This document shows, one piece after another, positions 21,773 to 32,178 of a stretch of DNA of 33,653 bases. The notes beneath the pieces are model-generated. The model was not told the origin of the DNA, searched no databases, and saw only the letters and a program-made list of their open reading frames with translations. Made by a program: the position numbers and the translations under genes. Position 1 is the first letter of the stretch. Each line of letters starts with the position of its first letter. Source of the DNA: Bullifex porci (lineage in GTDB: Bacteria; Spirochaetota; Spirochaetia; Sphaerochaetales; Sphaerochaetaceae); assembly GCF_009695635.1 (NCBI RefSeq), contig NZ_VUNN01000024.1, positions 1 to 33,653 of the forward strand. The letters are read 5' to 3'.

Positions 21773-21784
21773 AATGTCTGTCAT

Positions 21785-21858
21785 GTGGGAGTAGCGAAGC
21801 TGGTTATCGCGCTGGCCTGTCACGCCGGAGATCGCGGGTTCGATCCCCGTCTCTCACG
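21785..21858 (+). tRNA. trnD(gtc): tRNA-Asp (anticodon GTC), island integration site
   Basis: The 74-base cloverleaf has an acceptor stem GTGGGAG/CTCTCAC (one G-T pair), an anticodon stem CTGGC/GCCGG with the loop CTGTCAC (GTC at 21819-21821), T loop TTCGATC and discriminator G. CCA is not encoded. The last 24 bases are part of a 27-base sequence repeated exactly at 26778-26804, so the 3' end was rebuilt when the island integrated and the tRNA stayed functional. Confidence 0.95.
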
Positions 21859-21861
21859 AAC
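21835..21861 (+). repeat. attL: 27-bp direct repeat in the tRNA-Asp 3' end
   Basis: This block covers the 3' half of the T arm, the acceptor stem and three more bases (begins CGGGTTCGATCCCC, ends CTCACGAAC). It matches 26778-26804 at all 27 positions, and identity breaks off on both sides. A tRNA 3' end as core is the usual target of tyrosine recombinases. Confidence 0.88.
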
Positions 21862-21896
21862 AAGACTCTAGGTATAATGCTTAGAGTCTTTTTTTT
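21862..21896 (+). terminator. Terminator behind tRNA-Asp (island copy)
   Basis: AAGACTCTA pairs with TAGAGTCTT (9-bp stem, 11-base loop) and is followed by TTTTTT. It lies immediately after attL and therefore inside the island. A sequence of the same design, with compensating base changes in the stem, lies after attR. Confidence 0.85.
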
Positions 21897-21915
21897 GTCC
21901 CCGTAAAACCTGATA

Positions 21916-21955
21916 TTGAGAAAAATTGAGAAAAAAGCTGCGAGAAAATGGGAAA
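21916..21955 (+). repeat. Left-end short repeats (possible recombinase arm sites)
   Basis: TTGAGAAAAA occurs twice in tandem at 21916-21935, and CTGCGAGAAAATGGGAAA follows at 21938-21955. Copies of both occur near the right end of the island (26337-26346, 26624-26641, 26667-26676) in the same orientation. This is the layout of arm-type sites of a tyrosine-recombinase element, though the motifs are A-rich and could be coincidental. Confidence 0.4.
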
Positions 21956-22102
21956 AATGTGTAAATTGTGGCAAAAAGCTTTAATAAGTTTAGCCTTCTT
22001 GTCAAATGTGTAGACTATCTAAGAATAATGAAGAGAGACTTGTAGATAAACAATTGCACATTTTATCGATGAAGTAAGGTTGTATTGAAGAAAATCAAAT
22101 GA

Positions 22103-22132
22103 TTGACGCAATAAGCTTTGAGAGGTTATTAT
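22103..22132 (+). promoter_or_regulatory. Promoter of the antisense RNA (antitoxin)
   Basis: TTGACG (22103-22108), an 18-base spacer and TATTAT (22127-22132) form a good sigma-70-type promoter reading toward the 3' end of the small toxin gene. A transcript would start near 22139. Confidence 0.6.
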
Positions 22133-22138
22133 ACAAAT

Positions 22139-22245
22139 AGGAAGTGGCCTGTCGATAGACGGCGTTCACTCCAAGTTATTAACAGCAAAAATCGCCGCTA
22201 TAGATCTTGGCAGAACTAGTGGCGATTATTTTTATCTTTTTTACC
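22139..22245 (+). ncRNA. Predicted antisense RNA antitoxin of a type I system
   Basis: Between the promoter at 22103-22132 and the T-rich tract near 22230-22242 lies a GC-richer segment of about 105 bases without an ORF. It begins with GCCTGTCGATAGACGGCG, which can fold as GTC-GATA-GAC, and ends with the 11-bp hairpin shared with the toxin mRNA. It is complementary to the 3' end of the toxin reading frame and its 3' untranslated region. This is the geometry of the known txpA/RatA-like loci and of loci coding for 'holin-like' small toxins. The exact ends are inferred. Confidence 0.6.
22190..22227. terminator. Shared bidirectional terminator of toxin and antitoxin
   Basis: AATCGCCGCTA (22190-22200) pairs with TAGTGGCGATT (22217-22227) in an 11-bp stem with one G-T pair and a 16-base loop. 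On the minus strand it overlaps the last codons of the toxin and runs into TTTTTG. On the plus strand it runs into ATTTTTATCTTTTTT. Confidence 0.75.
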
Positions 22246-22326
22246 AATAGTAATTCCAAGCGAAATTGCTGAAATTACTAAACCGATAAGCAATATTATT
22301 AAACTAAAAGTTTCATAATCTGACAT
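22216..22326 (-). CDS. Small hydrophobic toxin-like peptide (holin-like, type I toxin)
   Basis: This 36-residue peptide starts MSDYETFSLIILLIGL, has one membrane helix (about residues 8-27) and a short charged tail KKDKNNRH. The M-(S/T)-x-Y-E-x-(L/F)-S-L start, single helix and K-K-D-K tail are the layout I know from 'putative holin-like toxin' peptides of Firmicutes, which poison the cell membrane. The ribosome site is unusually strong, AAGGAGGTGA spaced correctly before ATG. The leader is long and GC-rich, with two mutually exclusive hairpins. A convergent RNA overlaps its 3' end. Together these point to a type I toxin-antitoxin pair that would stabilise the island. Family membership is by pattern, not alignment. 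Confidence 0.7.
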   Translation of the reverse strand: MSDYETFSLIILLIGLVISAISLGITIGKKDKNNRH

Positions 22327-22334
22327 ATCAGTCA

Positions 22335-22393
22335 CCTCCTTCAACATTAAGTCTATGGAGGAAAGACCTCCACGCCGTAAGAGCGACATGGAG
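22335..22393 (-). promoter_or_regulatory. Structured leader of the toxin mRNA
   Basis: Two alternative hairpins share bases 22368-22372: TGGAGG/CCTCCA (22356-22372) and a 10-bp stem with two G-T pairs (22368-22393). In the mRNA the CCTCC arm could also pair with the Shine-Dalgarno AAGGAGG (22335-22341), so the leader may hide or expose the ribosome site. Long structured leaders are typical of type I toxin mRNAs, which need processing before translation. Confidence 0.5.
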
Positions 22394-22507
22394 CGAACAA
22401 CCGCCTACCGTTTCGAATCAGGCCACGTATTAAGTAAAAACTATTATTCTTCTGTGGTCAATAATAATTCTATTGCACTTGTCCTTTGCAAAAAGGTGGA
22501 GTAAAGA

Positions 22508-22750
22508 CTATTTTCTTGGAGTAGGAATGGTAACAAAATCATCAAACAATGATGAATCCTTCTCATCCTCTGTAATATCCCTCAGAGATGGCTTCCAAAG
22601 CCTACAGGCTTCTTTAGAGAGCTTAACAATGTTGTAATATGATTTATGCTCAACCTGCTCATTCTTGCAAAGTCTCATGTGTGATCCATTTGTCTTTAAA
22701 CACGAAGAGCACCAGATATATCTTCCAAATGTTAGCGTCCGCACTCCCAA
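22508..22750 (-). CDS. Small cysteine-containing protein, unknown or remnant
   Basis: This is an 80-codon frame (TTG start; an alternative GTG lies two codons on) with WCSSC at residues 18-22 and a further Cys near residue 35, followed by YYNIVKLSKEACRLWKPSL and an acidic tail. The Cys spacing hints at a small metal site, but no family is recognised. It has no convincing ribosome site, and an in-frame stop lies a few codons before the start. It may be a fragment of a longer gene. It lies 40 bases behind the zinc-module frame on the same strand. Confidence 0.4.
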   Translation of the reverse strand: MGVRTLTFGRYIWCSSCLKTNGSHMRLCKNEQVEHKSYYNIVKLSKEACRLWKPSLRDITEDEKDSSLFDDFVTIPTPRK

Positions 22751-22790
22751 ATGGTTAATTCAAGCGGACTCTAACAATATTTCTCTCCTT

Positions 22791-23042
22791 TTACCATTTA
22801 TACTTTCCTTTCTTTGATTTATACCTGTTTCCATATGATTTTTTCTTTTGATATGAATAATTATTTTGATAACCATAAAATGGTGTTCTTATTTGCTTGA
22901 CTAAATTTTCCTTGATAGGTTGTAATTTTGGAAATAGATATTTCCCCCAATCCTTTGATGATCGAAAGTCATACAAACAATCAACATGATTATCGCTTAA
23001 CCCTACACAGTAAAAGCAACTTCTACATGTTTCTATTGTCAC
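22791..23042 (-). CDS. Zinc-binding C-terminal module, probably the -1-frame extension of the CoiA-like gene
   Basis: This 83-codon frame opens with GTG, but no ribosome site precedes it. The frame is actually open further upstream, back to the A8 run at 23107-23114 inside the CoiA-like gene. Read in that frame the sequence runs KINDCPQAQPRKNVTIETC, then RSCFYCVG and HVDCLYD. The cysteines (CP; C-x2-C-x2-C; DC) look like a zinc ribbon such as often follows a CoiA-like nuclease domain. The last 30 residues are a Lys/Tyr/Asn-rich basic tail suited to nucleic-acid binding. A -1 shift gives one protein of about 321 residues. A separate short protein is less likely. Confidence 0.55.
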   Translation of the reverse strand: MTIETCRSCFYCVGLSDNHVDCLYDFRSSKDWGKYLFPKLQPIKENLVKQIRTPFYGYQNNYSYQKKKSYGNRYKSKKGKYKW

Positions 23043-23074
23043 ATTTTTTCTAGGTTGAGCTTGTGGACAATCAT

Positions 23075-23755
23075 TTATTTTCTGATTTGGCTTAGAGATT
23101 GGATAGTTTTTTTTGTATTGTTGAAATTCTGTTCCTTAATAACAGCTATTGGCATATGAATCCAGTTCATTCTAGCTGTCTCTCTTAAGTGTAACCTCAA
23201 ATCTTCTTTTGTCATGTCATCATGAACAAATTCGCTGAGATCAATCTCAATTACGGGTAGATTGGCCTCAATGATTTTATTCTTCTTATTTTCATCTACA
23301 GCATGTGTAACATATATTTCAATGAGAAGAGTGGCGTTGCCTTTCTTCAGTATTATATCTGGAATAAAGTCTGAAATTTTCTTTTCCAGTTCGACTTCTT
23401 CAATTTGCCATTTACCCCCGCGGAAGAAATAAGCAATATAATTTCCTGCTTGAGAAGACAACGATGGCAACTCGATTTCCTTTTCCTCTAGGAAAATCTG
23501 TTCTGCCATAGCATGGATATTTGTCTGCTTTATATATTCAGGATGGGTACATGGAGAATCTTGTTTGTGGGCAAAGTGAGGAACTTTTCCTCCATTACCT
23601 TTTTTTGCAATCAGACTTTCTCCACAGATTGGACATGTACAGTTACATGCTAAACCATTATGTGATTTATCAATCTGTTTGATATGAATAGGTTCTCCTT
23701 TTTCGTTTAGTGCGTATTCTTGAATCTCATTAGCTATATGTCTCTTTGCTTCCAC
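23075..23755 (-). CDS. CoiA-like nuclease-domain protein
   Basis: In its own frame the protein has 226 residues. An N-terminal zinc knuckle, CNCTCPICGESLIAKKG near residues 38-54, is followed by VPHFAHK, the CoiA-family landmark for a preserved Cys/His module. The nuclease core follows, with DFIPDIILKKGNATLLIEIY near residues 128-147 (D-x-n-E-x-Y of a PD-(D/E)xK-like fold) and LPVIEIDLSEF. CoiA itself acts in competence; island-borne relatives are of unknown role and may act on incoming DNA. The start is GTG with TAGGAG 9 bases upstream. Near the 3' end a run of eight A allows a -1 shift into the zinc-module frame. It lies 93 bases behind the HTH gene. Confidence 0.75.
   Translation of the reverse strand: MEAKRHIANEIQEYALNEKGEPIHIKQIDKSHNGLACNCTCPICGESLIAKKGNGGKVPHFAHKQDSPCTHPEYIKQTNIHAMAEQIFLEEKEIELPSLSSQAGNYIAYFFRGGKWQIEEVELEKKISDFIPDIILKKGNATLLIEIYVTHAVDENKKNKIIEANLPVIEIDLSEFVHDDMTKEDLRLHLRETARMNWIHMPIAVIKEQNFNNTKKTIQSLSQIRK
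23107..23114 (-). other. Possible -1 slippery site (A8 run) in the CoiA-like gene
   Basis: On the coding strand the codons are ACA AAA AAA ACT, giving the heptamer A AAA AAA in the right phase for tandem -1 slippage. After the shift the reading continues AAC TAT CCA into the zinc-module frame, and without it translation stops 10 codons later. The same run could cause transcript slippage, or may mark a recent one-base deletion (or a sequencing error). Confidence 0.5.
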
Positions 23756-23848
23756 TTAATATTCTCCTAATGTAATTCTTTGTTCCACGATAAAAACTTT
23801 CACAATTATGTATCCATCCCCTATATAAAAGTCTGGAGCTTATAGCAA

Positions 23849-24691
23849 TTAGAACAAATTCTCATTCCAATCATCTGGAAGTCTCATAGAACCCGAACGG
23901 TAATTTGATACAAGTTTTTCAACTTCTTTAACTTTTGGCCATGTACCGACTACCGATGCTGAATTGGTTATATTTGAATTGCTTATCAACATAAGCTCTA
24001 TCTTTTCTCTTTCCGCATCTGTAAGGACTTTTTCATGGATAAATGCAGGAACATAATCAAAAAGTATCAAGTACCCTTTTTCAGCTTTTGATTTATTTAT
24101 ATCAATGACACATGGATTTTGATTAATTGAAACACCAATCTCTTTTGGAAGAGATAAGTAATGGCCATTGTTATAATATCTTACAGGAGTAAATCCTCTT
24201 GTTGGGGGATCAGTAATTTCTGGTATTCTCCATTCCCCACCGACTTTGATAGCATTTCTTAGCTTTCCTCTTCTAATCCACTGGCGGACGGTTACTTCCT
24301 CAATCTTAGAACGTATTGCAAACTGCTCAACTGTTAGTAATTTAACAGGGTAGTTGATTAATCGAAATCTCTCGTCGATATCAAGAACAAGATTACCGTC
24401 TTCATCTTCCTGAATATCATTGATATGCCTAATATATAGGGATGCACTTTTGTTTGTCACCTCAAATGAATAGAACCATCCTTCAGGTGCATCGAATATG
24501 TTCCTCGATGAAATTTCTAGAATTACCTTATCCAAGAGCAAAAGCAAGGCATTATAGTATTGTAAAGTGTGCTGAGGATTGTTTCTCATTTCAGATACAA
24601 TGTCTCCACTGGCATTATTTAAAGTCGCAATGATTGTCTGTTTCTTGTTTGGAAGGTTCTTCCAGACTTCTACTGATTCTTTGGAAAACAT
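23849..24691 (-). CDS. Helix-turn-helix (excisionase/MerR-like) DNA-binding protein
   Basis: The 280-residue protein has one recognisable domain in the middle: LLTVEQFAIRSKIEEVTVRQ, followed by WIRRGKLRNAIKVGGEWRIP (about residues 117-156). This is the HTH_17/excisionase pattern, in which a winged helix ends with a W-R-I-P strand. The N-terminal 110 and C-terminal 120 residues match nothing I know. It has no Cys cluster or nuclease motif. The start ATG has AAAGG nine bases upstream. Directly upstream are repeated and inverted AATACA motifs that may be its own operator. As the first gene before the CoiA-like nuclease it may regulate that unit. An excisionase role alone would not need 280 residues. 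Confidence 0.6.
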   Translation of the reverse strand: MFSKESVEVWKNLPNKKQTIIATLNNASGDIVSEMRNNPQHTLQYYNALLLLLDKVILEISSRNIFDAPEGWFYSFEVTNKSASLYIRHINDIQEDEDGNLVLDIDERFRLINYPVKLLTVEQFAIRSKIEEVTVRQWIRRGKLRNAIKVGGEWRIPEITDPPTRGFTPVRYYNNGHYLSLPKEIGVSINQNPCVIDINKSKAEKGYLILFDYVPAFIHEKVLTDAEREKIELMLISNSNITNSASVVGTWPKVKEVEKLVSNYRSGSMRLPDDWNENLF

Positions 24692-24709
24692 TCTAATTAC
24701 CTTTTTTTT

Positions 24710-24745
24710 GTATTATAACAATACATTATTATAAAAACAATACAT
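24710..24745 (-). promoter_or_regulatory. Candidate operator upstream of the HTH gene
   Basis: AACAATACAT occurs twice in direct orientation at 24717-24726 and 24736-24745, 19 bases apart. TGTATT at 24710-24715 makes an inverted repeat with AATACA of the first copy. The segment lies just upstream of the HTH gene, where a repressor would bind. The region is very AT-rich, so this is tentative. Confidence 0.3.
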
Positions 24746-24748
24746 AAA

Positions 24749-24997
24749 TCAATATAAATTCTGATAAAGACGATGGTATTCAAAGACGGGTAAAAGTTTA
24801 TAGTGTATAATATACAATTGGGATTCAAGTGAATAGAAATCTTCAACGACATCTTTGAGAGTAAGACTAGCAACATCTATAGATTCTCCTTCTTTCTTTA
24901 ATAATGGGTTGAGCTTTCCATAGATGAAAGATGCGAGTACAACTTCTTCATATTTATCATCTCTACCAATAAACGTAATGATTGCCTTATGATATTG
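24749..24997 (-). pseudogene. 5'-truncated gene fragment, unknown family
   Basis: An 82-codon open stretch has no start codon: an in-frame stop lies immediately upstream, and no ATG or GTG occurs early. The peptide reads like real protein (AIITFIGRDDKYEEVVLASF; then IYGKLNPLLKKEGESIDVAS), with normal amphipathic pattern and codon use. Its 5' end meets the 5' end of another fragment on the opposite strand. I do not recognise the family. Confidence 0.45.
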
Positions 24998-25308
24998 TTA
25001 AGCAGTTTGGAAAAAAGTTTAATATTCATCCTTATACCAAACTTTACCTGGCTCCATTTGATAGAGAGATGGAAGATCAACTTTGGAACCAGTTTATAAC
25101 AAGTGAACAAGATTTATTATCAAAGAAAGTGCTGCAGCTTGAAGTTGCTCTTGATATCCAATCTCAAAGATTAGTTAAAAAGATCCTTCGTCCGGTAGAT
25201 GAAGCTGATGCATACTTCGATAAGGCCAATATTGATAAGGCTCAATTGATAGATAAACTAGCAGCAACACTCGATGAGTATACAAAAATAGAGCAGATGC
25301 TGAAGTGA
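24982..25308 (+). pseudogene. Gene fragment or small protein, unknown family
   Basis: The 108-codon frame can start only at TTG, which directly follows an in-frame TGA, and no ribosome site is visible. The peptide is protein-like: FNIHPYTKLYLAPFDREMED near the start, then a helical, charged C-terminal half (LLSKKVLQLEVALDIQSQRL; DEADAYFDKANIDKAQLIDK). It is most likely the 3' part of a gene whose beginning was lost at the junction with the fragment at 24749-24997. A genuine small protein is possible. Confidence 0.4.
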
Positions 25309-25345
25309 ATAGGGGGTTACATCGAACTTATTCCGATGCATCAGC

Positions 25346-25425
25346 AAACATCGGAAAACATCGGGAAACATCGGGATAACTTTGGGATAACTTTAGGATA
25401 ACTTTGGGATAACTTTGGGATAAAG
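25346..25425. repeat. 10/11-bp tandem repeat block
   Basis: Three copies of AAACATCGGG-like units spaced 10 bases apart (25346-25375) run directly into four full copies plus a partial fifth of GGGATAACTTT spaced 11 bases apart (25373-25425; the third full copy begins with A). On the minus strand each 11-bp unit reads AAAGTTATCCC. The spacing of one helical turn suits a row of protein-binding sites (iterons or operators). Because 10 and 11 are not multiples of 3, the block is unlikely to code in its present form. It lies in a 234-base gap without a gene between the fragment and the DUF3800 gene. Confidence 0.7.
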
Positions 25426-25542
25426 TATTACTTATCGCTATGATTGAGGATTATATATCAAAGAAGTTATCTATAAACAAAGGGGTGATTACCTTTATAC
25501 AGAATAGGAATTGATGGATAGCAAATAACGTTTGAATGCAAT

Positions 25543-26223
25543 CTAAGATAACTTTTCTTTATCTTCTAACACTTTTAGATACTTTCTATTCAAAACTCTT
25601 TCTTGTTCAAAAAACAACAACTCATTTTTTGCAAGTTCATGACTTTCCATCTTCAACTTGAGTAGTTTCAGTGAACACACAAGATCTGCAACTTGGAACA
25701 ATCTGTAGTCAGAAGGATATACCCTTCTGAATTCGACGTTATCAAGAAGGGCATTGAATACAGAGGAAAGCAACTTCGTGATTTCAACCTGTCCATTATC
25801 GTAATAGACTTTTACAACATCATAGTCTATGAAGAATTCATAATTATCCTTAATGAATCTTGCAAGCAACTTAGATAGTTTAGATACAGCTTCAAGCGGA
25901 TCTACTATATGTTTTTTCTCAATAGCTATTGTTTTGCAGGAAATTTCAAGATGCCTGAAAAACACCATTATCGCTTTCAGTAATTTACGTCTGTTATCAA
26001 GTGTGTCTTTTCTATACTCTTGCTCATTTCGGATGATAGGTCCTGAGTGCATGCAATGATTTGGATAACCAAGGTCTGCAAGTTTGCTTTCTAACCAGTC
26101 CACATCTTTTGTTATATCAATTGATTGGTCATGAAGAATCATTGATATGATGTAGTATGAAGAGTGTTCAGCGTAATCGCCAAAATCCCCTGATTCGTCA
26201 ACGAATATGCTTAGCTCTTTCAC
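25543..26223 (-). CDS. DUF3800 family protein (RNase-H-like fold)
   Basis: The 226-residue protein opens with LSIFVDESGDFG, the DUF3800 hallmark: a D-E-S-G-(D/N) strand-turn that holds the first acidic residues of an RNase-H-like site. Downstream, VVKVYYDNGQVEI (~residue 138) and FQVADLVCSLKLL (~residue 178) supply the other conserved aspartates. Members are common on mobile elements and near defence genes. Their activity is unproven, but a nuclease is expected. The start is GTG with GGGAG six bases upstream. An intrinsic terminator ends only four bases before that ribosome site. Upstream lie a short structured RNA and a promoter, so expression is probably set by read-through of that terminator. 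Confidence 0.8.
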   Translation of the reverse strand: MKELSIFVDESGDFGDYAEHSSYYIISMILHDQSIDITKDVDWLESKLADLGYPNHCMHSGPIIRNEQEYRKDTLDNRRKLLKAIMVFFRHLEISCKTIAIEKKHIVDPLEAVSKLSKLLARFIKDNYEFFIDYDVVKVYYDNGQVEITKLLSSVFNALLDNVEFRRVYPSDYRLFQVADLVCSLKLLKLKMESHELAKNELLFFEQERVLNRKYLKVLEDKEKLS

Positions 26224-26237
26224 TAGTTACTCCCTGG

Positions 26238-26267
26238 AAAATAAAAATAGCGGGCGTCCTGCCCGCT
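26238..26267 (-). terminator. Intrinsic terminator in front of the DUF3800 gene
   Basis: On the minus strand AGCGGGC pairs with GCCCGCT (7 bp, nearly all G-C, 5-base loop) and is followed by ATTTTTATTTTCC. It faces the DUF3800 gene and would stop most transcripts from the promoter at 26324-26352. Confidence 0.8.
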
Positions 26268-26317
26268 CTTGAGGGGGACCCGGGTCTATCGACCAGCCCC
26301 TAACTGGTTATCCAGCT
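26238..26317 (-). ncRNA. Predicted short structured RNA upstream of the DUF3800 gene
   Basis: This GC-rich island of about 80 bases lies between a good minus-strand promoter and a strong terminator and has no ORF. Predicted elements in order are CTGG-ATAA-CCAG; a GGGG/CCCC stem enclosing GGTC-GATA-GACC; and the terminator hairpin. The segment CTGGTCGATAGACC shares nine bases (TCGATAGAC) with the antisense RNA at 22139-22245, which also ends in ATTTTTAT. It may be an orphan type I antitoxin, an attenuator or a type-III-like RNA antitoxin; ends are inferred. Confidence 0.55.
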
Positions 26318-26323
26318 ATCTAT

Positions 26324-26352
26324 AATATATGCTAAATTGAGAAAAAAATCAA
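26324..26352 (-). promoter_or_regulatory. Promoter of the short RNA/DUF3800 unit
   Basis: On the minus strand TTGATT (26347-26352), a 17-base spacer and TATATT (26324-26329) form a good sigma-70-type promoter. The predicted start is near 26317, at the beginning of the GC-rich structured segment. Confidence 0.6.
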
Positions 26353-26777
26353 TTTAGATTAATTTGGATTAATTGAAAATAGTAAAGCTTCTATTGTAGA
26401 AATAGCCTAATAATGACTATGTGAATCAAAACGATACGATTTACATGTTGAGGAGAATTGAAAGAAAAACATAGATAGGGAAACAAATAGATATGGATTC
26501 CCAAATTGCATGTTTATGCAAAGGAGTCAGAACCAAAAGCACAACAGAAGGGGTTATGATTGTAGGAAAAACCGCATTTCTTGGTGTTGATAAAGCCTAG
26601 ATTTCGTAGTTCAAAAAATTCATCTGCGGGAAAATGGGAAACTTTTAATGGTGCTTTGAGGAAACTTTGAGAAAAACTTTTGGAATATAATAGAGGAAAT
26701 TAAAGCAAAAGGAAGAAATTAAGTATAAATAAGGAAAGCAAATATTTCTCTAATTTCCCTAATTTATCAAAAGCTCT
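26353..26777. other. Gene-free AT-rich right end of the island
   Basis: No ORF longer than about 35 codons is convincing here, and no integrase remnant could be read in any frame. The region holds copies of the left-end motifs: CTGCGGGAAAATGGGAAA at 26624-26641 (17 of 18 bases as at 21938) and TTGAGAAAAA at 26667-26676, with a related TTTGAGGAAAC just before it. Another TTGAGAAAAA lies just outside this stretch at 26337-26346. Confidence 0.5.
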
Positions 26778-26804
26778 CGGGTTCGATCCCCGTCTCTCAC
26801 GAAC
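26778..26804 (+). repeat. attR: 27-bp direct repeat of the tRNA-Asp 3' end
   Basis: This sequence is identical to 21835-21861. Upstream of it there is no tRNA structure, only AT-rich sequence, so it is a displaced fragment and not a second tRNA gene. Confidence 0.88.
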
Positions 26805-27582: not shown

Positions 27583-30018
27583 ATGAAGAAATCCCTCATA
27601 ATGATAATGATTGCCATAGTGGCTTTGATGGTTTCCTGTGAACCAGTGCATGTTGATAATCTGCCTCATTCCATCATCTATACACTGGATGGAGGCTACT
27701 GGACGGAAGAAGCACCGATGACGAGTGCCGTATTCAACAACAGGGTAATACTCCCTGTTTGCGAGAAACGCGGTTATACGCTCACGGGATGGAAGAGTGA
27801 GCAGGTTAAAGTTGAAGGTACCACTGAGACTGAATTCTCATTCATCATGCCTGCCGAGGACGTGAATGTCACACCCATATGGAGTGCCAACATTAACCCG
27901 ATCAGTTATGACCTTTCAGGAGCTGCCTGGCCTTCACTGTATGAGCCTGCAACCAAGGCACGTACAAATGATACGGTCATCATATCAAAGGACCCGGAAC
28001 TGACCGGAAGTGAGTTCGTGCGCTGGCAGTCCAATGATGTTGACATCTCTCTGACAAAGGACGGATGGTCCTTCGTCATGCCTACAGAAAAAGTTTCCCT
28101 GAAAGCGGTTTTCAGTGATAAGGCCTTCATGATTTCATACATATTAGGGGAAGGTGCCGTCTGGGACGGAAGCTACTTCGTGGACTTTGCGGGATATGGA
28201 CAGAATGTAGAAATTATTGCTGAACCAGTTAGAAAGGGTTACACCTTTATTGGCTGGATAAGTGAAGATGTAGAGTTAAGTCATAATAAAATTTGGTCCT
28301 TTACAATGCCAGGAAAGGATGTTGATATTGAAGCTAAATGGAGAACAAATAGTAATAGCATTACATATACAGGAACTGAAGGCTCTGATTTTAATCCAAG
28401 CCAATATCCAACTATTGCTTTTACTGGTGATGTAATTACTCTTCCTGATTTAACTAAAGAAGAAAGAAACTTTAGAGGTTGGAAAATAACAGGTGCAGAA
28501 GTTTTTCTTGCAGAAGATGGAAAAATACAATTTAAGATGAGTGGTGAGGATGTTATTGCTAAAGCTCTATGGAAGGGTAATGAATATAGTATTACTTATA
28601 ACAATGTTGGTGAAAGTGTTTCTGGACAAGATAAATTACCAGTTAAAGGCTTTGCTGGTGATATCATCGATTTACCAAGGTTAACTTATGATAACCATGT
28701 ATTAACTGAATGGACTAGCAATCCTCAAATAATTTTTAATTTAGGAGCAATAGAAGGAACATATACATTTGAAATGCCTAAATCAGATGTAGTATTAACA
28801 GCTAACTGGGAAGTTAAAATCAATTACGAAGGTATTGATAATGCTGCTGCAGATGGTTTCTTACCTGAAAGTATTAAAAACGGCTCAACAATTTACTTAC
28901 CATCACTTTCAAAGTATGGATATAAATTTGATGGATGGTATATAGGTGATGAGCTACTTACTAAAACAGATAAAGGCTATGAATTAACACAGCGTTCTGA
29001 TGCCCCACAGACTATTACAGCAAAGTGGAAAAATGTCTATAAAGTCGTTTACTACTGTTATGGACAGAGAATGACAACCGATAATGTAATTGCAGGAGAA
29101 GCATATAAAGTAAGGGAAAATCTCAAACCTGCACTGGAGAACTTCGCAGGCTGGGTTGATAATAATGATGAATATAAATTGTATACGAGTAATGAAGTGA
29201 TAACAGAAGTAAATAAAAACATTACTCTAAATGCAGTTTATGCAACCCCGATTAACGGAAGAATTTTCTATGATGATTTTGATCCGAATATAAACAAAAA
29301 TCAGTATCTGTTCTTCGATAAGGATCTTAAGAAAATAGATTATCATTTTACGCTTGATTATGGATATTCATGCTATAAGGATCTGGCAGATGCCGTATAT
29401 TACTGGACAAGTAGCAGGGACAGGAAAAAGGACAGGTTCTACGCGTATGATACCGTAAAACATGAAGATAATCTTTACTGGGTACCGGACCACTTCGATG
29501 TAAGGGAACTAACGAGGTCATTTGATACTCGCCTGGGTGTTAATTCGACGGAAGGAAGCGTAATGGGGGCCGGAAAGTATAACACCGAGTATCTGTTTGG
29601 CATTATAGAGAAGGATAAACCGATTTTTTATAGTGATTATCTCATCGGTAACAGCACATACGCTACTACGCTTCATGACTCAGACAGGCAGTCCGTCTGG
29701 TTTTATGTCAACAGCAAGAATGAGGACATGAATTATTCAACAGACTGGTATGTCGGAAGCTATGGCGATTATAAAAAGCTTATTGATGTCCTCTATAATA
29801 AAGATTCAGATGAATATAATCGTATCCTTTCAAGAGATGTGATATCAAGTTCTGAAGCAGGAAAGGTGGGAGGAGAGGATCCATTTGTTGCAGAATATAC
29901 TTATTACAAGATGTGGAATGGAGATGGTAAAACCTCTCAAGGAAAGTATGAAACCCCTCAATGGGAAAATGTATATAAAGACATTGGTGGATATGTAATA
30001 CCTCTAAGGTCATTTTAA
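27583..30018 (+). CDS. Large InlB-repeat lipoprotein
   Basis: The 811-residue protein has a lipoprotein signal (MKKSLIMIMIAIVALMVSC, Cys19), then about seven repeats of 65-80 residues of the Listeria-Bacteroides (InlB B-repeat, beta-grasp) type. Each repeat has a G-Y/F-x-x-x-G-W strand and an F-x-M-P-x-x-D-V-x-x-x-A-x-W end (for example GYTFIGWISEDVEL and FTMPGKDVDIEAKW at about residues 219-252). From about residue 550 a different C-terminal domain follows, ending KDIGGYVIPLRSF. It is probably displayed on the cell surface for adhesion or binding. Codon use and G+C switch within the gene: higher to about 28.2 kb, low to about 29.0 kb, higher to about 29.75 kb, then low. Confidence 0.85.
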   Translation: MKKSLIMIMIAIVALMVSCEPVHVDNLPHSIIYTLDGGYWTEEAPMTSAVFNNRVILPVCEKRGYTLTGWKSEQVKVEGTTETEFSFIMPAEDVNVTPIWSANINPISYDLSGAAWPSLYEPATKARTNDTVIISKDPELTGSEFVRWQSNDVDISLTKDGWSFVMPTEKVSLKAVFSDKAFMISYILGEGAVWDGSYFVDFAGYGQNVEIIAEPVRKGYTFIGWISEDVELSHNKIWSFTMPGKDVDIEAKWRTNSNSITYTGTEGSDFNPSQYPTIAFTGDVITLPDLTKEERNFRGWKITGAEVFLAEDGKIQFKMSGEDVIAKALWKGNEYSITYNNVGESVSGQDKLPVKGFAGDIIDLPRLTYDNHVLTEWTSNPQIIFNLGAIEGTYTFEMPKSDVVLTANWEVKINYEGIDNAAADGFLPESIKNGSTIYLPSLSKYGYKFDGWYIGDELLTKTDKGYELTQRSDAPQTITAKWKNVYKVVYYCYGQRMTTDNVIAGEAYKVRENLKPALENFAGWVDNNDEYKLYTSNEVITEVNKNITLNAVYATPINGRIFYDDFDPNINKNQYLFFDKDLKKIDYHFTLDYGYSCYKDLADAVYYWTSSRDRKKDRFYAYDTVKHEDNLYWVPDHFDVRELTRSFDTRLGVNSTEGSVMGAGKYNTEYLFGIIEKDKPIFYSDYLIGNSTYATTLHDSDRQSVWFYVNSKNEDMNYSTDWYVGSYGDYKKLIDVLYNKDSDEYNRILSRDVISSSEAGKVGGEDPFVAEYTYYKMWNGDGKTSQGKYETPQWENVYKDIGGYVIPLRSF

Positions 30019-30030
30019 AGGAATAATGAT

Positions 30031-32178
30031 ATGAAAAAGATTACGTTAATTTTATTTAGTTTACTAATATTTTTCTTGTTCTCCTGTGATAATGAACCTC
30101 CTAAGGAGCCTGGAAATCTTTACAATATTAAATATGAAAAAAATGGAGGAGAATGGGTAACAACTCCTCCTGAAGATACTGCACAAACAGATTCTGATGT
30201 TTATCTTGATGAAAAACCTAAATTAGCTGGTTTTCATTTTGTCAAGTGGACAAGTGATGATGTTAAACTTGATTTAACAAAGTTTGGTTACCACTTTAAA
30301 ATGCCAAGCCATAGTGTTTCTTTAAAGGCTGAGTATTCAGCAGACAGATATGGAATAACATATGTCCTGGGCGGCGGTGATTTCGCTGAGCAGTGGTATC
30401 CTGAGAGTGCATATAAGGATGAGGAAGTGTTCATAGTGGCTTCCCCCGAAAAGGCCGGATATGTGTTTGCCGGATGGGAGTCAAGTGATGTTGAAGTTGA
30501 AATAAAAAAGGATGATGATATTTATTCCTTTAAAATGCCTGATGAAGATATTGCGCTTAAAGCAAAATGGGAGGCTAATCTCATTGAGTTAAAGTGGTTC
30601 GAAATCGGGGATATAAGTGTTGCCCGTCAGGCTTATACGGATCAAGTGATTACTCTTCCCACAGGCCTTACCAAAGATAATTATGATTTTGTTGGATGGC
30701 GTGTAGTTCCAAATACAGTATCAGAAGATGGTACTACCTTCACTGTATGGCAGATTGATGAAAAAAATAAGTACATGACCATAGAGGCATTATGGGTGGG
30801 TAAAAAATATAACATCCAGTATAACATCGGGGAAGGTGCAGTCTGGAAAGAGCCACCTAAGACAGAAGGAAAGCTCTTCAGCGAGGTTATAATCCCTGAA
30901 TTGAATAAAGAAGGTGTTGTCGTAACCGGGTGGAACAGCAGTGATCCGAATGATGACATTCAGAAACTTCCAAGTGAGGATGTCAATGCATACCGCTTAT
31001 TCAGGGTGAGCGGAGATGATATAACCCTCACTCCTATTTATGAAGTAGAAATTAATTATGATCTTGTGCATAATAATGCGAAGATAATTGAGGATTATGA
31101 TACTACTGCAAAACAATATTCTGTAATACGCCTTCCAAGGTGTGAGTGTGAAGGCTACCGTTTCTTAGGTTGGAAGTATAAATCAACAGAAATACCTATC
31201 GCTGAAATAGATGGAAAGTGGCATATCGCTGTTGGTAATGAAAGAGTTTCGGTCGAAGCCGTTTGGCAGAAGGTAAATACCATTAAATTCTATGATGGTG
31301 ATAATCTATTAGCTACTTTTGAAGTTGAGGATGGAGATAATATTAAGATGCTATATCCTGATCCATCAAGATGGCCAAAGGGATCTAAATTCATGTCATG
31401 GTATAATATGGATGCAGGCAAGGGAAACTATATTAAGGCTTTTGAGAATTATATTCCTTCAACTAGTGTGTCGTTTAAGGCTGTATGGGGATATCCGATC
31501 GGAGGTGCCCTTATGTATGATGATCCCGAGGCAAGGGATGAGAATATTGTTTATTCATTCTTTAAATCCGATGGTACCTGGCAGAATTATGAACCGGGTA
31601 TGATTCATACCATAGGATTCACCCCGGATTATTACTCTGTTGAACTGAAGAATGGTGCAACAATAACAAAGGACAGATTCTATGTGTATCGTCCTGGTTG
31701 GGAAAGGACAGATGCTACGTGGACCTACTCCGTGAATGGAACATTCCAGTTCCCGATAACAGGGGCAAACAAAACCGAAATAGGTGGAGGTAAGTACAAT
31801 ACTCAGCTGGTTTTGGGCCTTATAAAAGAAGGAGAAGAGGCAAAGAGGGGTATTGCGAACATCAATACTTCATCACCTTATACTCAGCCTGATCCTAAAG
31901 GGATGGGAGACAACTACACGATATGGAGCTGTCTGCAGGTACTGAATAAGACCAATAAATGCAATGACTGGTACATTCCATCACCTGAAGAGGCCAGACT
32001 GATAAAAGAATATCAAGGATCAAGTACGCCTATATGGACCAGTGCTGAGGCCCGTATTACACCTCAGAACAGTGTCTTTGTCGCCTGCTTTGATACTGAT
32101 GTGAAAGAATCGTACATCGACTCATGGTCAAAAGTCAATTTGGGGCACGTAATGATTGACTATATGAGATCGTTCTGA
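30031..32178 (+). CDS. Second InlB-repeat lipoprotein with DUF1566-like C-terminus
   Basis: This 715-residue paralogue of the preceding gene lies 12 bases downstream with an AAAGGA ribosome site. It has a lipoprotein signal (MKKITLILFSLLIFFLFSC, Cys19) and about six InlB B-type repeats (for example GFHFVKWTSDDVKL, FKMPSHSVSLKAEY). From about residue 485 (GGALMYDDPEARDENIVYSF) comes a C-terminal domain with CNDWYIPSPEEARLIKEYQG, PIWTSAEAR and a final MIDYMRSF. The D-W-Y-(L/I)-P-S and W-T-S-(S/A)-E pattern fits the DUF1566/Lcl C-terminal fold of bacterial surface proteins. The first lipoprotein has a divergent version of the same end (TDWYVGSYGDYKKLI). Base composition is again mosaic. Confidence 0.85.
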   Translation: MKKITLILFSLLIFFLFSCDNEPPKEPGNLYNIKYEKNGGEWVTTPPEDTAQTDSDVYLDEKPKLAGFHFVKWTSDDVKLDLTKFGYHFKMPSHSVSLKAEYSADRYGITYVLGGGDFAEQWYPESAYKDEEVFIVASPEKAGYVFAGWESSDVEVEIKKDDDIYSFKMPDEDIALKAKWEANLIELKWFEIGDISVARQAYTDQVITLPTGLTKDNYDFVGWRVVPNTVSEDGTTFTVWQIDEKNKYMTIEALWVGKKYNIQYNIGEGAVWKEPPKTEGKLFSEVIIPELNKEGVVVTGWNSSDPNDDIQKLPSEDVNAYRLFRVSGDDITLTPIYEVEINYDLVHNNAKIIEDYDTTAKQYSVIRLPRCECEGYRFLGWKYKSTEIPIAEIDGKWHIAVGNERVSVEAVWQKVNTIKFYDGDNLLATFEVEDGDNIKMLYPDPSRWPKGSKFMSWYNMDAGKGNYIKAFENYIPSTSVSFKAVWGYPIGGALMYDDPEARDENIVYSFFKSDGTWQNYEPGMIHTIGFTPDYYSVELKNGATITKDRFYVYRPGWERTDATWTYSVNGTFQFPITGANKTEIGGGKYNTQLVLGLIKEGEEAKRGIANINTSSPYTQPDPKGMGDNYTIWSCLQVLNKTNKCNDWYIPSPEEARLIKEYQGSSTPIWTSAEARITPQNSVFVACFDTDVKESYIDSWSKVNLGHVMIDYMRSF

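What the first reader, a model, noticed from the sequence alone, without database searches (positions are those of the whole stretch)
26221..26352. Promoter - structured RNA - terminator - DUF3800: a possible RNA-controlled nuclease module resembling type III toxin-antitoxin loci
Seen: a good minus-strand promoter (TTGATT-17-TATATT), about 80 bases of GC-rich hairpin-forming RNA without an ORF, a strong intrinsic terminator, and four bases later the ribosome site and GTG start of a DUF3800 gene. Known: type III systems (ToxIN, CptIN, TenpIN) have exactly this order, with an RNA antitoxin made from a short promoter unit and the RNase toxin expressed by terminator read-through. DUF3800 has an RNase-H-like fold and is common on mobile elements. 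Inferred: the RNA may inhibit or guide the DUF3800 protein. Against: I see no clear tandem repeats in the RNA, which type III antitoxins have, and DUF3800 is not homologous to ToxN.
Basis: partly seen in the sequence, partly recalled or inferred. Interest (0 to 1): 0.68.

Follow-up and report, generated by a model that had tools for sequence, protein, structure and literature searches.

The report
Known DUF3800-XI RNA before nuclease-like gene
The stretch makes a short folded RNA of an already catalogued family (DUF3800-XI) that is found just in front of a gene for an RNase-H2-like protein; what the pair does has not been tested, but the layout fits an RNA that holds a nuclease in check.

Summary
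Window 26300-26252 (-) is a full-length match to Rfam RF02975, DUF3800-XI RNA (47.9 bits, cut-off 37.8), so the leader RNA is not new. Promoter, core hairpin, intrinsic terminator and DUF3800 gene recur in dozens of loci in Spirochaetota, Lachnospiraceae, Actinomycetota and viral contigs. Core hairpin and terminator stem both covary, and the promoter is conserved far above shuffles. All 28 near-full-length DUF3800 genes of this clade in 393 genomes carry this RNA or a sister RNA upstream. The protein is predicted to have an RNase HII-like fold with an invariant D-E...D...D set. It is not a type III toxin-antitoxin locus by definition: no RNA tandem repeats and a different toxin fold. It may still work like one, as the AbiF/RCd22 pair does (PMC12373285). 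No antiterminator fold was found and no pairing to its own ribosome site. Direct repeats of the tRNA-Asp 3' end bracket the locus as a 4.9-kb island. By-product: a second RNA, not matched in Rfam, precedes a sister DUF3800 clade. Function remains inferred.

The parts
26324..26352 (-). sigma70-type promoter TTGATT-17-TATATT
   Evidence: 9/12, alone not above chance; conserved across relatives
26302..26317 (-). 5' accessory hairpin AGCUGG-AUAA-CCAGUU, found in one of the two promoter-distance classes
26252..26300 (-). DUF3800-XI RNA (Rfam RF02975), full-length match
26275..26300 (-). core hairpin: 4 bp, 2-nt bulge, 6 bp
   Evidence: fold; covariation
26249..26267 (-). terminator stem-loop AGCGGGC-AGGAC-GCCCGCU; stem covaries although Rfam leaves it unpaired
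26238..26248 (-). U-rich tract of the terminator
26230..26235 (-). ribosome binding site AGGGAG
   Evidence: read by eye
25543..26223 (-). DUF3800 gene (226 aa, GTG start), RNase HII-like predicted fold, invariant D9, E10, D142, D180
21829..21861 (+). left copy of the repeat: 3' end of tRNA-Asp (tRNA 21784-21859)
26772..26804 (+). right copy of the tRNA-Asp 3' end (31/33 identical), followed like the left copy by a terminator; brackets a 4943-bp island holding the module

Best explanation
It is a DUF3800-XI RNA module. From one promoter a terminated RNA of roughly 65-85 nt is made in excess, and read-through of the terminator gives a little DUF3800 mRNA. The RNA most likely binds the RNase HII-like DUF3800 protein and restrains it, so that the pair behaves as an RNA antitoxin and nuclease toxin (or abortive-infection effector) carried by mobile DNA. 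Shown here by computation: RNA family, structure, promoter, terminator, linkage, predicted fold and acidic set. Inferred: excess of RNA, read-through, direct RNA-protein binding, nuclease activity, inhibition, defence or addiction role.
For: RF02975 match. RNA-first and protein-first searches meet at the same loci, RNA upstream and on the same strand wherever the gene is intact. Covariation in both hairpins, lost when partners are slid. Conserved promoter placing the RNA 5' end at or just before the hairpins. Start codon 7-29 nt after the RNA model's end in the 33 loci measured. 28 of 28 near-full-length genes in 393 genomes keep an upstream RNA, whereas RNA persists where the gene is broken or gone (7 and 8 of 29 loci). 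RNase HII-like fold with invariant D9, E10, D142, D180. No alternative antiterminator fold and no pairing to its own ribosome site, which argues for a protein-binding RNA rather than a switch or antisense. Carriage on a tRNA-bracketed island and on viral contigs. Precedent: abiF RNA RF03085 binds and neutralises its downstream nuclease-family protein (PMC12373285).
Against: No toxicity, binding or transcript data exist for this family in the papers found. The RNA is a single unit, unlike repeat antitoxins. The asymmetry (RNA kept, gene lost) is weak evidence, because the gene is about ten times longer and a larger target for decay. Other DUF3800 proteins are proposed accessories of CRISPR effectors (PMC10910872, PMC12669027), so the family may not be toxic by nature. 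No common defence partner in the neighbourhood and no PADLOC hit.
Confidence: 0.45

Rival explanations
1. Cis autoregulation: the DUF3800 protein binds (and perhaps cleaves) its own leader RNA to set read-through or stability of its mRNA. The RNA is a leader element with no role in trans.
For: RNA always in cis and on the same strand when the gene is intact; terminator directly before the ribosome site.
Against: Terminator stem is so stable (11-20 kcal/mol gap) that no intrinsic switch is seen; the core and terminator persist, still foldable, at most loci without the gene.
Confidence: 0.25
2. RNA as cofactor or guide: the RNA forms an active ribonucleoprotein with the RNase H-fold nuclease, directing or activating it against invading nucleic acid.
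For: RNase HII-like fold and intact acidic set; DUF3800 proteins accompany Cas12a2-type and VI-F systems (PMC10910872, PMC12669027).
Against: RNA is about 65-85 nt, almost wholly paired and strongly conserved, with no variable stretch that could serve as a guide; the terminator keeps most transcripts from the gene.
Confidence: 0.2
3. Metabolite- or tRNA-sensing attenuator (riboswitch-like leader).
For: Structured RNA plus terminator before a gene.
Against: No competing antiterminator in 59 loci; where a full-length gene follows the RNA it is of the same family; apical loop variable in sequence and size.
Confidence: 0.05
4. The unit is a small transposable element (like IscB/HEARO) whose RNA is part of the mobility machinery.
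For: Several copies in some genomes (G283, G197), internally deleted copies (L060, L075).
Against: Copies within a genome are diverged, with similarity mostly confined to RNA and gene and no shared terminal borders; only 2 integrase and 2 DDE transposase hits among 117 neighbours.
Confidence: 0.05

Closest known systems
DUF3800-XI RNA, Rfam RF02975 (one of the DUF3800 RNA motifs; Weinberg et al. 2017, cited by PMC10910872)
   Same: Full-length match over the gathering score; same position before a DUF3800 gene
   Different: Rfam leaves the terminator stem unpaired; here it covaries. This genome's RNA also has a 5' accessory hairpin shared with spirochaete relatives
AbiF / RCd22 (abiF RNA motif, Rfam RF03085) of Clostridioides difficile (PMC12373285)
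   Same: Promoter, structured RNA not cut into repeat units, terminator, nuclease-family gene, on mobile DNA; RNA shown to bind and neutralise the protein
   Different: Protein is of the Abi_2/AbiD/F family linked to Cas13, not RNase H-like; RNA carries two abiF motifs; no known homology to this RNA
Type III toxin-antitoxin systems ToxIN, CptIN, TenpIN (PMC5086642)
   Same: Order promoter, RNA, terminator, gene
   Different: No tandem repeats, no ToxN-type toxin
RNase HII
   Same: Best fold match (VIA Z 8.4, rmsd 4.0, 161 aligned, 1eke_B; Foldseek E 3e-5); DE.G motif in strand 1 and two later aspartates
   Different: No detectable sequence homology by profile comparison; the genome has its own true RNase HII

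Membership tests
Rfam RF02975 DUF3800-XI RNA | covariance-model score above gathering cut-off, full length | tested here: met
   47.9 bits against 37.8, model 1-48
Rfam RF02975 DUF3800-XI RNA | located near a DUF3800 gene | tested here: met
   DUF3800 start codon 29 nt after the RNA match; PF12686 E 5.7e-9
Type III toxin-antitoxin | antitoxin RNA made of tandem repeats processed into monomers | tested here: not met
   single RNA unit in the window and in aligned relatives; definition from PMC5086642
Type III toxin-antitoxin | toxin of the ToxN/CptN/TenpN family with MazF/Kid-like fold | tested here: not met
   protein is PF12686 with RNase HII-like predicted fold
Type III toxin-antitoxin | promoter, RNA, Rho-independent terminator, toxin gene in that order | tested here: met
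   (by sequence; transcripts not measured)
Type III toxin-antitoxin | RNA binds and inhibits a toxic endoribonuclease | not testable with these tools
   needs expression and co-purification
RNase HII-like nuclease | RNase H fold with D-E, D, D acidic set | tested here: inconclusive
   fold match and four invariant acids in the right order, but superposition of the residues not checked and profile comparison fails
Attenuator or riboswitch | mutually exclusive antiterminator fold | tested here: not met
   11-20 kcal/mol gap in 59 loci
Genomic island at a tRNA gene | direct repeat of the tRNA 3' end at both ends | tested here: met
   31/33 identical, 4943 bp apart
Genomic island at a tRNA gene | integrase gene inside and an empty site in relatives | tested here: inconclusive
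   no integrase ORF seen among the ORFs, an excisionase-like HTH gene is present; flanks too diverged for an empty-site test

The most novel reading that the evidence does not exclude
DUF3800 clades and their several unrelated upstream RNAs (DUF3800-XI here, and a sister RNA not matched in Rfam found here) form a second large superfamily of RNA-restrained nucleases built on an RNase H fold, parallel to ToxIN and AbiF.
Probability: 0.35. Interest if true: 0.75.

Novelty: new member of a known kind. Interest (0 to 1): 0.38.

Why it matters
DUF3800 RNAs have been catalogued since 2017, and none of the papers found here tests their function. The conserved promoter and terminator, the RNase HII-like fold and the observation that intact genes are not found without an RNA turn a vague association into a testable prediction: a nuclease held in check by its leader RNA. 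DUF3800 proteins also accompany some CRISPR effectors, so the answer would bear on those systems too.

Tried and rejected
Antiterminator or switch folding: rejected. RNA pairing with its own ribosome site: own pairs no better than swapped ones (-13.7 against -13.5 kcal/mol). Transposon hypothesis from multi-copy genomes and internally deleted copies: copies diverged, no shared borders. Common neighbouring partner gene: none (117 ORFs, most frequent HTH_3 in 5). Solved structure of a relative by sequence: none. Profile-profile comparison with RNase HII: only the DE.G motif aligns, not significant. PADLOC, NCBIfam and PHROGs gave nothing for the DUF3800 protein. Empty-site comparison of the island: flanks not conserved. 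The original 2017 paper is not held. RNA-kept/gene-lost asymmetry as proof of antitoxin: not accepted, target size alone could explain it.

Full report
What is there. Reading the minus strand from 26352, the window holds a sigma70-type promoter (TTGATT-17-TATATT), a small 5' hairpin, a core hairpin, an intrinsic terminator, a ribosome site and the GTG start of a 226-aa DUF3800 gene. The core and terminator fold far better than shuffled sequence (z = -3.4). A scan against Rfam names the RNA: RF02975, DUF3800-XI, full length, 47.9 bits against a cut-off of 37.8. This genome holds one copy of the RNA and one DUF3800 gene, at the same locus. DUF3800-associated RNAs come from the 2017 comparative study of intergenic regions (doi 10.1093/nar/gkx699), which is cited for this association by PMC10910872; the paper itself is not held.

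Conservation. Searching genomes with the protein brought 52 loci from Spirochaetales, Lachnospiraceae, Eggerthellaceae, Atopobiaceae and others. RF02975 lies directly upstream on the same strand in most of them. A model built here also recognises the RNA in several loci below the Rfam cut-off (L028, L032, L034, L037, L043). Searching 393 genomes of the phylum with the RNA alone gave 28 genomes with matches. Of the 29 RNA loci read out, 14 are followed by a full-length DUF3800 gene, 7 by a broken one and 8 by none. Searching the same genomes with the protein gave 23 near-full-length genes of the main clade, all with this RNA, and 5 of a sister clade with a different RNA; none lacked an RNA. Three of these 28 hold one in-frame stop. 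Viral contigs carry the module too.

RNA structure and expression. In 29 distinct aligned RNAs, 94.8% of pair cells are standard pairs. Seven pairs change on both sides: three in the core and four in the terminator stem, which Rfam leaves unpaired. Sliding the partners removes the signal. The 2-nt bulge between the two core stems is nearly constant in size, while the apical loop varies. Promoters are conserved: 37 of 65 upstream regions have a match of 10/12 or better, against 3.8 (sd 2.0) in shuffles. The -10 mostly ends either 4-8 nt or about 20-32 nt before the core, the second class having an accessory 5' hairpin as in the window. The start codon follows the RNA model's end by 7-29 nt in the 33 loci measured; in a few others (L014, the L021 group) it lies further away. 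Together this indicates a short RNA unit transcribed and terminated by itself, with the gene reached by read-through. That last step is inferred, since no transcript data were available.

Protein. The model is confident (pLDDT 94.9, pTM 0.91). The best solved matches are RNase HII (Foldseek E 3e-5; VIA Z 8.4, rmsd 4.0, 161 residues; a Z near 8 alone would be modest). Four acids, D9, E10, D142 and D180, are invariant across 33 relatives. They lie in strand 1, at the end of a central strand and in a late helix, which from general knowledge is the arrangement of RNase HII. Sequence profiles do not align beyond the DE.G motif, so homology to RNase HII is not claimed. The fold agrees with the published statement that DUF3800 has an RNase H fold with a catalytic rearrangement (PMC10910872).

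How it may work. Switch-like attenuation is disfavoured: forbidding the terminator stem costs 11-20 kcal/mol in all 59 loci tested. Antisense on its own ribosome site is disfavoured. What remains is an RNA that acts on, or with, the protein. The closest tested analogue is AbiF of C. difficile: the RNA RCd22, with a catalogued RNA motif (RF03085), is followed by a terminator and a toxic protein, and neutralises it by direct binding (PMC12373285). By that analogy the most likely reading is an RNA-restrained nuclease, at about 0.45. Cis autoregulation (0.25) and an activating or guiding cofactor (0.2) are the main rivals. Persistence of the RNA at loci that have lost the gene fits an antitoxin but is also what the larger mutational target of the gene would give.

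Membership. It belongs to RF02975 and DUF3800. [quoted passage not shown] Gene order alone is met.

Surroundings. A 33-bp direct repeat of the tRNA-Asp 3' end (21829-21861 and 26772-26804, 31/33 identical), each copy followed by a terminator, brackets 4943 bp. Inside lie the DUF3800 module, an excisionase-like HTH protein, a CoiA-N-like protein and small ORFs. No integrase ORF was seen, and an empty site could not be shown because the flanks are not conserved. The module is most likely cargo of a small decayed island.

By-product. A sister DUF3800 clade in the same bacterial family is preceded by another RNA (AGGUCGGACACCAAGCCGAACAGGGGCGAGUCCCCGCC plus terminator), without a match in Rfam at E up to 0.5. 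It occurs in 15 genomes, in 3 of the 167 genera sampled, including one weak outlier match. Its three stems are 99% paired, with four pairs changed on both sides in 18 sequences, few independent events. In intact loci its CAAGCC loop is complementary to the GGCUUG next to the ribosome site (by eye), untested against chance.

Noticed in passing
L121:1407-1485, L123:2183-2261 (-), L125:1409-1488 and 2381-2458, L041:2752-2829, L158, L160, L165 and others: A second structured RNA before a sister DUF3800 clade (or orphaned), with no Rfam match at E up to 0.5; three stems with modest covariation; its loop could pair with the ribosome site region of intact genes.
   Followed up: partly
window 21784-26804: 4943-bp island bracketed by tRNA-Asp 3'-end direct repeats, with terminators duplicated as well; tRNA-Asp has extra copies or fragments nearby in G310 (C40) and G226 (C7), suggesting a hotspot.
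   Followed up: partly
L060, L075 (and L089): DUF3800 genes with internal deletions that keep only the first and last tens of codons (L089: only the first few codons) while the upstream RNA stays intact.
   Followed up: partly
L094, L096, L099: Orphan DUF3800-XI-like RNAs directly after the stop codon of an unrelated upstream gene; they may now serve as that gene's terminator.
   Followed up: no
L020:2893-2990: DUF3800-XI RNA with two successive GC-rich terminator-like hairpins instead of one.
   Followed up: no
L045, L046, L047 (upstream of DUF3800): More diverged DUF3800 genes with a multi-hairpin leader of similar layout that the models barely or do not recognise; possibly further RNA classes.
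   Followed up: no
L170:1501-1582: Weak match to the sister RNA in a different family of the phylum (28 bits), without DUF3800 nearby.
   Followed up: no
window 25367-25423: Four to five copies of an 11-bp tandem repeat (AACTTTGGGAT) just after the DUF3800 gene.
   Followed up: no
window 27583-32178: Two adjacent large lipoprotein-like genes (811 and 715 aa) with repeated GY.F.GW..SDV-type modules, right outside the island.
   Followed up: no
window 23849-24691 (-): Island gene with an excisionase-type HTH in its middle and no relative elsewhere in the genome.
   Followed up: partly
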